Assembly: GCA_017546175.1 (NCBI GenBank)
Contig: JAFYXM010000010.1
Span: 124,001 to 188,000 of the forward strand
Direction of reading: 5' to 3'
DNA length: 64,000 nt
Source of the DNA: Elusimicrobiaceae bacterium
Lineage (GTDB): Bacteria > Elusimicrobiota > Elusimicrobia > Elusimicrobiales > Elusimicrobiaceae
The position numbers and the translations under genes were made by a program. Shown in pieces: positions 11,705 through 15,569 of the stretch; position 1 is the stretch's first letter, and each line of letters begins with the position of its first letter. Below the pieces are notes generated by a model. That model saw only the letters and a list, made by a program, of their open reading frames with translations, was not told the origin of the DNA and made no database searches.

Positions 11705-11716
11705 TATACTGTGTAT
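11705..11716 (+). promoter_or_regulatory. -10 box six bases before the ATG (leaderless-type start)
   Basis: TATACT (11705-11710), six bases, then ATG at 11717. No ribosome site is present. One of nine starts with this fixed geometry in the window. Confidence 0.5.
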
Positions 11717-12454
11717 ATGTTGTGGGCTTATATACAAAGTTTTTGGTTTCCCTCCTATCACCGTTTTTCACGTATCAGCACTTGGAAAACGGCCTTATTT
11801 GCGTTATGGATTTTATTGGTAGGAGTATTGATTTTTAACATTTATTTCATCTTGCAGTTGCGCGCTCAATTGCCGGTGTTTTTGGCTTCTCTGCCTACCG
11901 TTACATTTTCTCAAGGGCAAATGACTGCTCCTCAAAACAGAGTTTCCGTAGATGTGCCCAAAATGGACTACCAAATTGTTTTTGATGCCACCGCCGATAC
12001 TCCGCCCGATTATCAAACATTCTTAGATAATAAAATTATGATGTTTGTTTCTAAGAATCATTTTTCGGTACCGTCCGTATCGGGTGTGCAAACACAACCC
12101 ATTTCAACCGAATGGAATTTAGAGCTTACCCCCCAATGGCTCAAAGAAAATACAAAAGATATTGCTTCTGTGCTGCAAACTATTTTCTTCTTTGCTTCCT
12201 TTTTTGTTTTTGCCTCGTTTTTATTGGGATCTTTTTGTATGGCCTTGGCGGTGGTTTTTCTGTGGCAAGGGCTCAGCCGCAAGCGTGTTCCTCTGCCGGT
12301 GCGTCTGCGTTGGGCCGTTTTTCTGCAAGGGCCGGTGCTGACTTTATGGATTGTCAATTTACTGTTTGGTGTACCTTTATTTTTATTTGCCGTTTTTATT
12401 TTACTAATGATGTACAGCCAACAAATCTATAATACCCTGCCTGACGGGAAATGA
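11717..12454 (+). CDS. DUF1189-like multi-pass membrane protein
   Basis: A 245-residue membrane protein. The N-terminal SFWFPSYHRFSRIS resembles the SFxSPxFYR start of DUF1189 proteins. A first helix (residues about 25-48) is followed by a roughly 100-residue soluble segment containing VDVPKMDYQIVFDAT, and then four hydrophobic helices to the C-terminus. ATG 11717 is preferred over GTG 11711 because a TATACT -10 lies exactly six bases upstream, as in other leaderless-type starts here. The stop overlaps the following queD leader, so the gene may head the queuosine/folate operon. Function unknown. Confidence 0.65.
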   Translation: MLWAYIQSFWFPSYHRFSRISTWKTALFALWILLVGVLIFNIYFILQLRAQLPVFLASLPTVTFSQGQMTAPQNRVSVDVPKMDYQIVFDATADTPPDYQTFLDNKIMMFVSKNHFSVPSVSGVQTQPISTEWNLELTPQWLKENTKDIASVLQTIFFFASFFVFASFLLGSFCMALAVVFLWQGLSRKRVPLPVRLRWAVFLQGPVLTLWIVNLLFGVPLFLFAVFILLMMYSQQIYNTLPDGK

Positions 12455-12462
12455 GGAAAACT

Positions 12463-12807
12463 ATGTTACTTAAAATCATTCGCAAATTCAGCTCTGCACA
12501 CCGCTTGCCGCATTATGACGGCCCGTGCTATCAACTGCACGGACACACGTGGAAAGTGGTGTTTTTGATTGAAGGAGAAGTAAAAGAAAACGGTATGGTG
12601 CATGACTTTAAAGTGCTTAAAAAACTTTTAGACGAGCAACTGCCCGACCACCAATATTTAAACGACTTGGTGGAAAACCCTACCGCCGAAAATTTGGCCC
12701 CTTATTTATATCATAAGGTCAATCAAGCCTTACAGCCTTTAGCCTTAAAACTTAAATCTATTGAACTGTGGGAAAACGAAAATGCAGCAGCCGTGTTTGA
12801 AGGTTAA
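12463..12807 (+). CDS. queD: 6-carboxy-5,6,7,8-tetrahydropterin synthase
   Basis: A 114-residue PTPS-fold enzyme that turns dihydroneopterin triphosphate into carboxytetrahydropterin for queuosine. FSSAHRLPHYDGPCYQLHGHTW contains the zinc histidines (AHR, HGH) and the catalytic Cys four residues before HGH. The LWENENAA segment near the C-terminus carries the conserved pterin-binding Glu. ATG 12463 is chosen because GAGG lies just upstream; an in-frame ATG twelve bases earlier overlaps the preceding stop. The gene overlaps queE by 26 bases and folE, the supplier of its substrate, follows. Confidence 0.92.
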   Translation: MLLKIIRKFSSAHRLPHYDGPCYQLHGHTWKVVFLIEGEVKENGMVHDFKVLKKLLDEQLPDHQYLNDLVENPTAENLAPYLYHKVNQALQPLALKLKSIELWENENAAAVFEG

Positions 12808-13375
12808 CGAAATTTTTTATTCCATTCAAGGGGAAGGCCCGCATACCGGTATGCCTGCCGTGTTCGTGCGTTTGGCAGGATGTAGCATGGGATGTGAATT
12901 TTGTGACACCCGATATGCCTTTGCTCAAGGAGAAGACATGACGGTAGCACAAATCTTGGCTGCCATGAGCCAATACCCCTGTCACAACGTCGTTATCACG
13001 GGCGGAGAACCCACAGAGCAAGACTTTGCTTCCCTGGCCAGTGCCCTAAAAAAACAAGCTTGGAATGTGCACATGGAAACTAACGGCGCTCAAGACGCAG
13101 ATGTATCTGATATTGATTTCTTGGTTGTGTCCCCCAAAAAATATGTCAATCAAGAAATGCTTAAAAAAGCACACGCCATCAAAATAGTGGTCGGACAACA
13201 AACCGATTTGGAAGATTTAAAAAAATATTTTCAATACGCAAACGATCGTACCACCGTTTGCTTACAGCCCGAAAGTAATTTACAGGAGAATATAGACCTA
13301 TGCGTAAATCTCATCAAACAAAATCCGTTTCTAAGACTAAGCCTGCAAACACACAAAATGGCAAATATAAAGTAG
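12782..13375 (+). CDS. queE: 7-carboxy-7-deazaguanine synthase (radical SAM)
   Basis: A 197-residue radical SAM enzyme of the queuosine/7-deazaguanine pathway acting after QueD. FYSIQGEGPHTGMPAVFVRLAGC leads into CSMGCEFCDT, the CX3CX2C motif that binds the 4Fe-4S cluster, and VVITGGEPTEQ is the GGE motif for S-adenosylmethionine. The protein is of the short form. ATG 12782 lies inside the end of queD; a TTG start 21 bases earlier is possible. The 3' end overlaps folE by 76 bases, a dense arrangement. queC is not in the window, so preQ0 formation must be completed elsewhere. Confidence 0.9.
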   Translation: MQQPCLKVNEIFYSIQGEGPHTGMPAVFVRLAGCSMGCEFCDTRYAFAQGEDMTVAQILAAMSQYPCHNVVITGGEPTEQDFASLASALKKQAWNVHMETNGAQDADVSDIDFLVVSPKKYVNQEMLKKAHAIKIVVGQQTDLEDLKKYFQYANDRTTVCLQPESNLQENIDLCVNLIKQNPFLRLSLQTHKMANIK

Positions 13376-13929
13376 CCAAAGTTTCCCAAGAAAAAATCTT
13401 GCAAAATTTGCGCGAAATTTTGGCCTATATCGGTGATGATCCGTCCAGAGAAGGCCTGCAGGAAACCCCCATGCGCATTTTGCGCAGTTGGGACAAACTC
13501 TACGGCGGTTATAAGCAAAAACCGCAAGACGTACTGAAAACCTTTACCGAAGGCTCTTGTGAAGAAATGGTGGTGCTCAAAGATATTGAATTTTATTCCA
13601 CTTGTGAACATCACTTACAGCCGTTCTTCGGCACCATCAGCATCGGTTATTTACCCAAGGACCGCGTACTGGGCATTTCTAAACTGGCGCGCCTTGTAGA
13701 AGTGTATGCGCGCAGATTACAAATCCAAGAAAAACTGGTGGCAGAAATTGCCGACAGTTTGATGGAAACCTTACAACCGCACGGGGTCATGGTGGTGTGC
13801 AAAGCCAAACATATGTGCATCAGCTCGCGCGGCATTGAAAAACACAATGCCGTCATGGTTACCAGTGCCATTCGCGGCGCGTTTAAAAAGCTGGAAGTAC
13901 GCAGCGAATTTTTGGAAATGATTAAATAG
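13300..13929 (+). CDS. folE: GTP cyclohydrolase I
   Basis: A 209-residue enzyme that converts GTP to dihydroneopterin triphosphate, the common precursor of queuosine and folate. YSTCEHHLQPF supplies zinc Cys and His ligands, GISKLARLVEVYARRLQIQEKL is the typical core, and KAKHMCISSRGIEKHNAVMVTSAIRG contains the second zinc Cys and substrate-binding residues. The first ~25 residues are basic and rich in Lys/Ser/Thr, an extension seen in many homologues. The start at 13300 follows GGAG within the end of queE. The following folP starts seven bases after the stop. Confidence 0.94.
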   Translation: MRKSHQTKSVSKTKPANTQNGKYKVAKVSQEKILQNLREILAYIGDDPSREGLQETPMRILRSWDKLYGGYKQKPQDVLKTFTEGSCEEMVVLKDIEFYSTCEHHLQPFFGTISIGYLPKDRVLGISKLARLVEVYARRLQIQEKLVAEIADSLMETLQPHGVMVVCKAKHMCISSRGIEKHNAVMVTSAIRGAFKKLEVRSEFLEMIK

Positions 13930-13936
13930 GATTTCT

Positions 13937-14731
13937 ATGACCGCTAAAATCATGGGCATTGTTAATGCCACTCCGGATTCTTTTTATGATGGAGACCCGC
14001 AGAATAATTTAGACAAACTCATGGCTAAATGCCGCCAACACATTAGTGACGGCGCCAGCATTTTAGATATCGGCGGAGAATCTACCCGCCCGTTTGCCAC
14101 GCCCGTTGAAGCCGAAGAAGAAATTGCCCGCACCTTAGAACTGGTCAAAACCGCGCGTCAAACATGGCCCGAAATTATTTTATCTCAAGACACTTACAAA
14201 ATTCCCGTAGCATTAGAAGCTTTAAAAGCAGGCGCCAATATGATTAATGATGTCAGCGGTACACCGGACCCTGAAATGTTTAAACTGGTGAAAGATTTTA
14301 ACGCGCAAATCGTCATCACCCACAACCGCGGCAACAGCCAAACCATGTATGAACATACGCAATATGAAGATTTAATTTTAGAAGTAAAAGAATTTTTAGC
14401 AAGTAAAATAGAAGAAGCACAAAAGGCCGGTCTGACAATGGAGCAAATCATCATAGACCCCGGGTTTGGCTTTGCTAAAACACGCGAACAAAACTACCGT
14501 TTGTTGGCCCACTGCAGCGAATTTAAAACACTGGGTGCACGTATGCTAATCGGTCTTTCCCACAAAAAATTCTTAAGCCAACCCAACGAAAAACCGCCCA
14601 AACGCAAAACGCAAACCTTGTGTGCCAATTTTGCCGCTTTGTGCGCCGGAGCCGATATTTTGCGCGTACATGACGCCAAAGAAACCCAAAAAGTATTAAA
14701 CTTCTTTCATGAACTGGAGGCCAACTCATGA
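13937..14731 (+). CDS. folP: Dihydropteroate synthase
   Basis: A 264-residue TIM-barrel enzyme that joins hydroxymethyl-dihydropterin pyrophosphate to p-aminobenzoate. GIVNATPDSFYDGD is the first signature (usually SFSDGG), SILDIGGESTRP the second, and NMINDVSGTPDPEMF, DPGFGFAKTREQNYRLL and GLSHKKFL follow in the expected order. The stop overlaps the start of the PTPS paralogue by four bases (ATGA), so it is cotranslated with it. A normal-length enzyme; target of sulfonamides in general. Confidence 0.93.
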   Translation: MTAKIMGIVNATPDSFYDGDPQNNLDKLMAKCRQHISDGASILDIGGESTRPFATPVEAEEEIARTLELVKTARQTWPEIILSQDTYKIPVALEALKAGANMINDVSGTPDPEMFKLVKDFNAQIVITHNRGNSQTMYEHTQYEDLILEVKEFLASKIEEAQKAGLTMEQIIIDPGFGFAKTREQNYRLLAHCSEFKTLGARMLIGLSHKKFLSQPNEKPPKRKTQTLCANFAALCAGADILRVHDAKETQKVLNFFHELEANS

Positions 14732-15078
14732 GCAAAGTGTATTTAACCCAAACAGGCTCTTTCCACGCCAAGCACAGCCACGACGGTTTTTTGGCCGAGC
14801 CTTTGCATGAGCATCTATTCCGCTATGAGGCCACTTTCTACGGAAACATCAACGAAGAACACTTTTTAATTGATTTTCGTCAAATCAGCCAACTCTTTAA
14901 AACCGAACTGGAAAAGAGATTAAACGGAGCAGATTTGGGTACTTTTTTGTCTTTTCCTACGGCTGAAAGCTTGGCTATTTGGATTTATAACCGTGTCAAA
15001 ACCCAAATTCCTCAGCTCTACAGTATTAAAGTAGCAGAAGATGTGGACCGCTGGGTAGAATACAGAGGCGAAGAATAA
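14728..15078 (+). CDS. PTPS-III-like protein, probable substitute for dihydroneopterin aldolase
   Basis: A 116-residue paralogue of QueD. The zinc motif is recognisable as SFHAKHSHDG and PLHEH in place of SxxH and HGH, and WVEYRGEE stands where QueD has its C-terminal pterin-binding Glu. It contains no Cys at all. Where QueD at 12463 has CYQLHGH, this protein has AEPLHEH, with a Glu three residues before the first His. PTPS paralogues with Glu replacing the catalytic Cys are known to make hydroxymethyl-dihydropterin from dihydroneopterin triphosphate and replace FolB in several phyla. Its position between folP and folK, with no folB, supports that role. The HGH to HEH change is unusual and needs checking. 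Confidence 0.75.
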   Translation: MSKVYLTQTGSFHAKHSHDGFLAEPLHEHLFRYEATFYGNINEEHFLIDFRQISQLFKTELEKRLNGADLGTFLSFPTAESLAIWIYNRVKTQIPQLYSIKVAEDVDRWVEYRGEE

Positions 15079-15569
15079 TGCCCCAAGCCATTTTAGCCCT
15101 TGGCAGCAACCAAGCAAACCCTAAAGAAAATTTGGACCGCGCCATTACTGCTTTAAGCGCTTTGGGCACACTCAAAGAAGTGGCCCCTTATATCCTTTCG
15201 GAGCCGGAAGGATATGATACACAACCTGATTTTGTAAATACCGTACTTATTTTATCTACGCCGTACGGTCCCGTAGATTTACTTAGAAAATTAAAAGAAT
15301 TAGAAACCAAACTGGGCCGAGTACCTACTTTTAAAAATGGTCCGAGAGTCATTGATTTGGATATTCTTTTTTATGAAAACCAAGTGATTTTTGATACGGA
15401 CGTCATGCTTTTTGTCCCCCACCCGCGCATACCTGAGCGGGAGTTTGTGTTAAAGCCGTTAAGTTACATTTTGCCAGATTTTATCCATCCTCAGTTGCAA
15501 AAATCTGTCACCCAGCTGTACCGGGAACTCATGCGAAAAAAAGCAAAAGTAACTTGTAAAATTTTGTAG
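15078..15569 (+). CDS. folK: 2-amino-4-hydroxy-6-hydroxymethyldihydropteridine pyrophosphokinase
   Basis: A 163-residue HPPK that activates hydroxymethyl-dihydropterin with ATP for FolP. LALGSNQANPKENLDRAI opens the fold, LGRVPTFKNGPRVIDLDILFY contains the RxxxRxIDxDI signature and magnesium Asp pair, and VPHPRIPEREFVLKPL is the conserved substrate loop. The start overlaps the PTPS stop by one base (TAATG). It ends the operon; the spacer to the OmpA lipoprotein is 34 bases and contains no strong terminator, so read-through is possible. Confidence 0.93.
   Translation: MPQAILALGSNQANPKENLDRAITALSALGTLKEVAPYILSEPEGYDTQPDFVNTVLILSTPYGPVDLLRKLKELETKLGRVPTFKNGPRVIDLDILFYENQVIFDTDVMLFVPHPRIPEREFVLKPLSYILPDFIHPQLQKSVTQLYRELMRKKAKVTCKIL

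What the first reader, a model, noticed from the sequence alone, without database searches (positions are those of the whole stretch)
14728..15078. Cys-less PTPS paralogue in the folate operon, likely bypass of FolB
Seen: between folP and folK sits a second PTPS-fold protein with no Cys; QueD in the same operon has C-Y-Q-L-H-G-H, this one A-E-P-L-H-E-H. No folB-like gene is in the cluster. Known: PTPS-III proteins with Glu at or near the Cys position convert dihydroneopterin triphosphate to hydroxymethyl-dihydropterin and replace FolB in several phyla. The extra G to E change inside HGH is not something I recall in that family and may alter zinc binding or catalysis.
Basis: partly seen in the sequence, partly recalled or inferred. 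Interest (0 to 1): 0.6.

Follow-up and report, generated by a model that had tools for sequence, protein, structure and literature searches.

The report
Folate-operon PTPS paralogue replacing missing FolB
A gut bacterium of the Elusimicrobiaceae that has no recognisable folB carries, inside its folate operon, a modified copy of a pterin enzyme that almost certainly does the missing step; this bypass is known from malaria parasites and other bacteria, but here with an unusually altered active-site motif.

Summary
Window 14728-15078 (+) encodes a 116-aa, cysteine-free PTPS-fold protein (Pfam E 1e-14, AlphaFold pLDDT 94), translationally coupled between folP and folK. Its motif A-E-P-L-H-E-H puts the Glu exactly where the published PTPS-III signature (ExxHGH) wants it. 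No FolB is found in this genome or in about 90 sampled genomes of its family. Across the phylum, all 32 FolK+ genomes with FolB have PTPS without this Glu, and 137 of 141 FolK+ genomes without FolB have a PTPS with it. In one subclade the gene is fused to folK. The FolB-bypass reading is therefore well supported, though not biochemically tested. The Gly-to-Glu change is not a special innovation of this genome: in 70 distinct orthologues Glu24 and all three zinc-ligand His are invariant, while the residue between the two His takes 12 identities, Gly included. Its side chain is predicted to point away from the zinc. Verdict: a divergent, PTPS-III-like variant of a known kind.

The parts
14728..15078 (+). 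Cys-less PTPS paralogue (called PTPSx here), PTPS-III-like, predicted to make 6-hydroxymethyl-7,8-dihydropterin in place of FolB
   Evidence: Pfam PTPS 1.1e-14; AlphaFold model pLDDT 93.8, best PDB matches QueD/PTPS with Z 16-18; conserved operon position
14794..14799 (+). codons of Ala23 (position of the PTPS/QueD catalytic Cys) and Glu24 (PTPS-III Glu of ExxHxH)
   Evidence: Glu24 invariant in 70/70 distinct orthologues; position 23 is A, N, S, D or G, never C
14806..14814 (+). codons of His27-Glu28-His29: two predicted zinc ligands flanking the variable residue that is Gly in HGH
   Evidence: H27 and H29 70/70; position 28 has 12 residue types (E20 T14 D10 S6 P5 K4 A3 R3 G2 L1 Q1 N1)
14773..14781 (+). 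codons of His16 (third predicted zinc ligand) and His18 (clade-specific invariant His)
   Evidence: both 70/70; His18 has no conserved counterpart in QueD or the hybrid PTPS
15037..15039 (+). codon of Glu104, predicted pterin-anchoring Glu
   Evidence: invariant in all 32 aligned PTPS of the phylum and 70/70 orthologues
15078..15569 (+). folK, next enzyme of the pathway; fused to PTPSx in some relatives
   Evidence: TIGR01498 E 1.2e-33, above cut-off; fusion ORFs L101, L106, L108, L110 read out, L100
13937..14731 (+). folP, dihydropteroate synthase
   Evidence: TIGR01496 E 4.8e-83
13300..13929 (+). folE, GTP cyclohydrolase I, supplies dihydroneopterin triphosphate
   Evidence: TIGR00063 E 1.7e-67
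12451..12807 (+). queD, Cys-bearing paralogue without the Glu (CYQLHGH)
   Evidence: best NCBIfam match TIGR03367 8.2e-24, 83.8 bits against a cut-off of 89.25
12761..13375 (+). queE (start codon uncertain), rest of the queuosine part of the operon
   Evidence: best NCBIfam match QueE, TIGR04322 3.8e-39, below its cut-off

Best explanation
PTPSx is a divergent PTPS-III-like enzyme that supplies FolK with 6-hydroxymethyl-7,8-dihydropterin, most likely directly from dihydroneopterin triphosphate made by FolE, so that the cell needs no FolB. Shown here: the fold, the conserved Glu24, His16/27/29, Thr78, Glu80 and Glu104, the absence of a recognisable FolB, the operon and the fusions to FolK. Inferred: zinc binding by the three His, Glu24 as the base that steers the reaction to side-chain cleavage (as Glu-38 does in Plasmodium falciparum PTPS), the triphosphate as substrate, and folate rather than another pterin as end product. 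The residue between the two zinc His is dispensable in this clade; the PTPS Asp-His relay has been lost. The QueD paralogue keeps the Cys and does only the queuosine step. The two jobs thus sit on two genes here, whereas related lineages without FolB have one CExxHGH protein that could do both.
For: Signature: PTPS-III is ExxHGH, QueD is CxxxHGH, and CExxHGH hybrids serve both pathways (PMC5041015). In P. falciparum, E38C or E38L abolishes 6HMDP formation (PMC2229834). Own genome: no FolB, no archaeal-type DHNA, two PTPS only, folE/folP/folK/folC present. Phylum: FolK+ genomes with FolB: 0 of 32 have Glu-type PTPS; without FolB: 137 of 141 do. Within the family, 0 FolB in any genome sampled, including a single-contig genome. 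Genera G070 and G089 lack PTPSx and instead have one CExxHGH protein (CERLHGH, CEALHGH). Two orthologues in genus g2 carry the literal ExxHGH (NEGAHGH, NESAHGH). Fusion PTPSx-FolK in several MAGs of one subclade. Profile of the clade matches best a Cys-less ExxHGH archaeal protein in the PDB, 2dj6.
Against: No activity or complementation data. The clade has lost the Asp-His pair that the Cys-bearing PTPS and the archaeal ExxHGH protein 2dj6 keep, so the chemistry may not be identical to characterised PTPS-III. The phylum-wide association is partly shared ancestry: on strongly supported branches only 3 independent pairs inform it, all in the expected direction, too few for significance. Four FolK+ genomes have neither FolB nor Glu-PTPS (G136, G275 and two about 80% complete), so at least one further solution may exist. 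The genome is 93% complete, so an undetected folB is formally possible.
Confidence: 0.87

Rival explanations
1. PTPSx is a DHNA-bypass enzyme but with a different substrate or a rebuilt mechanism: it acts on dihydroneopterin monophosphate or dephosphorylated dihydroneopterin, with His18 and other clade-specific residues in place of the Asp-His relay.
For: Asp-His lost and His18, Asn42, Glu44, Arg51 invariant in the clade; archaeal PTPS-III may use the monophosphate (PMC5041015).
Against: Gene order and Glu position fit ordinary PTPS-III; the canonical Cys-less PTPS-III-like proteins of family f4 have also lost the His of Asp-His (DYKN, NYKN), so that relay may simply be unneeded.
Confidence: 0.25
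2. PTPSx is a second queuosine-pathway enzyme or makes another pterin such as biopterin.
For: Same fold, same operon as queD and queE.
Against: The catalytic Cys and Asp-His required for QueD/PTPS chemistry are absent while a normal QueD is present next door; the gene sits between folP and folK and is fused to folK in relatives.
Confidence: 0.03
3. PTPSx is a non-catalytic or degenerate paralogue, for example a pterin-binding partner of FolK.
For: Loss of Cys, Asp-His and the Gly of HGH.
Against: dN/dS 0.03-0.07; zinc His, Glu24, Thr78, Glu80 and Glu104 invariant in 70 orthologues; otherwise no enzyme for the step in a genome with folE, folP, folK, folC.
Confidence: 0.05

Closest known systems
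PTPS-III (COG0720 subfamily; Plasmodium falciparum PFF1360w; bacterial FolB replacements)
   Same: fold, Glu in ExxHxH at the Cys position, three His, pterin-site Glu, clustering with folate genes, organism without FolB
   Different: literal HGH replaced by HxH, Asp-His pair lost, shortened loop between the first His and the HxH, clade-specific invariant His18
PTPS-I/QueD (6-carboxytetrahydropterin synthase, E. coli 4ntk)
   Same: fold (Z 17.7, rmsd 1.5 over 113 residues) and zinc His
   Different: no Cys, no Asp-His; Glu at Cys+1
PTPS-I/III hybrid (CExxHGH)
   Same: carries the Glu; present as the sole PTPS in related FolB-less lineages of the phylum
   Different: one bifunctional protein instead of two specialised paralogues
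SulD, bifunctional FolB-FolK of Streptococcus pneumoniae (2cg8)
   Same: fusion of the enzyme that makes the FolK substrate with FolK, as in PTPSx-FolK
   Different: FolB family, not PTPS family

Membership tests
PTPS / COG0720 superfamily | PTPS domain and T-fold | tested here: met
   PF01242 1.1e-14; model pLDDT 93.8 and top matches all PTPS/QueD
PTPS / COG0720 superfamily | three His zinc ligands | tested here: met
   H16, H27, H29 invariant in 70/70; metal itself not tested
PTPS-I (QueD) / PTPS-II, catalytic type | catalytic Cys plus Asp-His | tested here: not met
   Cys is Ala23; Asp-His replaced
PTPS-III | Glu three residues before the first His of the HxH motif (ExxH) | tested here: met
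   E24, 70/70; signature from PMC5041015
PTPS-III | literal HGH in ExxHGH | tested here: not met
   window protein has HEH; 68/70 orthologues deviate, two in genus g2 have HGH
PTPS-III | genome with folate genes but no FolB | tested here: met
PTPS-III | physical clustering with folate genes | tested here: met
   folE-folP-PTPSx-folK, conserved in the family, and fused to folK in some
PTPS-III | converts dihydroneopterin triphosphate to 6-hydroxymethyl-dihydropterin / complements a folB mutant | not testable with these tools
   needs enzyme assay or complementation
QueD (TIGR03367) | CxxxHGH and score over the curated cut-off | tested here: not met
   31.1 bits against 89.25; no Cys
FolB (PF02152) | FolB profile match | tested here: not met
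   no FolB match anywhere in the genome, this locus included

The most novel reading that the evidence does not exclude
The Elusimicrobiaceae clade is a mechanistically distinct DHNA-bypass enzyme: it has dropped the Cys, the Asp-His relay and the Gly of HGH and built a new acid-base set (Glu24, His18 and further clade-specific residues), and delivers its product to FolK, in some species within one polypeptide.
Probability: 0.2. Interest if true: 0.55.

Novelty: new variant of a known kind. Interest (0 to 1): 0.42.

Why it matters
It fills the missing folate step in a whole family of gut bacteria and gives a natural test of which residues PTPS-III really needs: the Glu and the His, but apparently neither the Gly between the His nor the Asp-His pair. 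The published motif ExxHGH would miss nearly all members of this clade, so annotation should use ExxHxH. The phylum also shows several solutions to one step: FolB, one hybrid CExxHGH protein, or separate QueD and Glu-type paralogues.

Tried and rejected
Zinc-site geometry could not be measured: no model coordinates were available. The origin of PTPSx (duplication inside the family or from a separate PTPS-III lineage) stays open: a 137-column tree puts the family's PTPSx in one clade (SH-aLRT 100) on a long branch, without a supported sister. A G261 Glu-type protein was labelled PTPSx in that run by my pattern; it lies outside the clade and its record is partly masked. A first run of the association test mis-scored genomes whose two paralogues share a locus; one search is the corrected run. 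(a short invented probe peptide) was useless and is not used. Promoter and terminator scans found no more than shuffled sequence gives. A genome-contig scan found 10 close relatives, with record titles naming Elusimicrobiaceae, Elusimicrobiales, uncultured Elusimicrobium and Candidatus Avelusimicrobium (one 'uncultured bacterium'), so it gave taxonomy but no distant members. No paper in the held library mentions both Elusimicrobi- and dihydroneopterin aldolase. The primary bacterial PTPS-III paper (tried by a DOI from memory) was not held. Whether a non-Gly HxH occurs in PTPS-III outside this phylum was not surveyed.

Full report
What is there. The ORF at 14728-15078 (+) is 116 aa long and free of Cys. 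It is a PTPS-fold protein by Pfam (1.1e-14) and by structure: an AlphaFold model from 32 aligned phylum sequences has mean pLDDT 93.8, and its best matches are QueD and PTPS structures (Z 16-18, rmsd 1.3-1.8 over 110-115 residues). It lies in a tight operon: DUF1189 protein, queD, queE, folE, folP, this gene, folK. It overlaps folP by 4 bases and its stop overlaps the folK start.

Motif. The published signatures are CxxxHGH for QueD, ExxHGH for PTPS-III and CExxHGH for hybrids (PMC5041015). The window protein reads A-E-P-L-H-E-H, so its Glu is exactly at the PTPS-III position. In P. falciparum PTPS this Glu is essential for making the FolK substrate (PMC2229834). Among 70 distinct orthologues of the family, Glu24, His16, His18, His27, His29, Thr78, Glu80 and Glu104 are invariant; position 23 is never Cys; and position 28, the Gly of HGH, takes 12 residue types, mostly polar. 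Note that the set was picked with a pattern that requires the H-x-H and E-x-x-H-x-H letters, so the invariance of those letters is partly built in; but nearly every family genome with the operon supplied a member, and the independent protein search and reading of the loci show no member without them. Two orthologues in a sister genus still have HGH. On the predicted strand 24-40 residue 28 alternates with the two zinc His, so its side chain should face away from the metal (inference from strand geometry). A larger departure is the loss of the Asp-His pair (DHxxLN in QueD, in the hybrids and in the archaeal ExxHGH protein 2dj6) in the whole clade. The separate EPLHGH proteins of family f4 have lost the His as well (DYKN, NYKN). 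Purifying selection is strong (dN/dS 0.03-0.07, with dS near saturation).

Is FolB missing? The whole genome has no FolB, no archaeal-type DHNA, two PTPS and a FolC. None of the sampled genomes of the family has FolB, including a 1,643,562-base single-contig genome, G067 (size; from memory this is the size of Elusimicrobium minutum, not verified).

Comparative test. FolK+ FolB+: 32 genomes, none with a Glu-type PTPS. FolK+ FolB-: 137 with, 4 without. FolK- FolB-: 11 without, 3 with (FolK- status of six of these genomes is inferred from their absence in the list of matches). Fisher's test gives p 8e-31 but ignores kinship; on supported branches of a PTPS tree only three independent pairs are informative, all in the expected direction. 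The pattern is therefore strong as a rule but rests on few independent events. Two of the four exceptions are about 80% complete genomes; G136 and G275 (family f6) remain unexplained. Three of the 32 FolB calls (family f5) are weak matches below the curated cut-off.

Division of labour. Other lineages of the phylum without FolB (f2, f15, f16 and more) have a single CExxHGH protein. Within the window's own family, G070 and G089 lack PTPSx and keep such a hybrid; genera with PTPSx have a QueD that has lost the Glu. G089's hybrid lies inside the family's QueD clade. This fits a split of a bifunctional protein into two specialists, though the origin of the PTPSx lineage is not resolved by the tree.

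Fusions. In several MAGs of one subclade PTPSx and FolK form a single ORF of 285-334 codons with a variable linker (ORFs of L101, L106, L108, L110 read; L100). This mirrors the FolB-FolK protein SulD of Streptococcus pneumoniae (2cg8 appears) and argues that PTPSx makes what FolK uses.

Conclusion. PTPSx most likely replaces FolB by the PTPS-III reaction. It works like PTPS-III; by strict signature it is not a literal member (HGH not met), so I file it as a new variant. Substrate, metal and activity are inferred, not shown.

Noticed in passing
L100, L101, L106, L108, L110: PTPSx and FolK fused in one ORF with linkers of variable length in one subclade of the window's genus.
   Followed up: yes
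L180 8287-10138, L188 2619-4470, L184 767-2783: In family f2 FolK is the N-terminal part of long ORFs (about 617-672 codons) whose C-terminal part looks like FolC (e.g. HVAGTNGKGSVAAM in L184), i.e. apparent FolK-FolC fusions.
   Followed up: no
L266 (G136), L261 (G275): FolK-positive genomes of family f6 with neither FolB nor a Glu-type PTPS; PTPS motif RCRHLHGHS / RCHHLHGHS. The dihydroneopterin aldolase step is unexplained there.
   Followed up: partly
L199 (G131), L198 (G203), L197 (G219): Family f5 genomes have only a weak, truncated FolB-like match (E about 1e-4, below the cut-off) right next to the PTPS gene.
   Followed up: no
L115 (G069), L172 (G245), L181 (G249), L175 (G255), L186 (G256), L178 (G263): Genomes without FolK and FolB also lack the Glu in their QueD, as expected if the Glu is kept only for folate synthesis.
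   Followed up: partly
window 11711-12454: A DUF1189 membrane protein heads the queuosine-folate operon and keeps that place across the family; role unknown.
   Followed up: no
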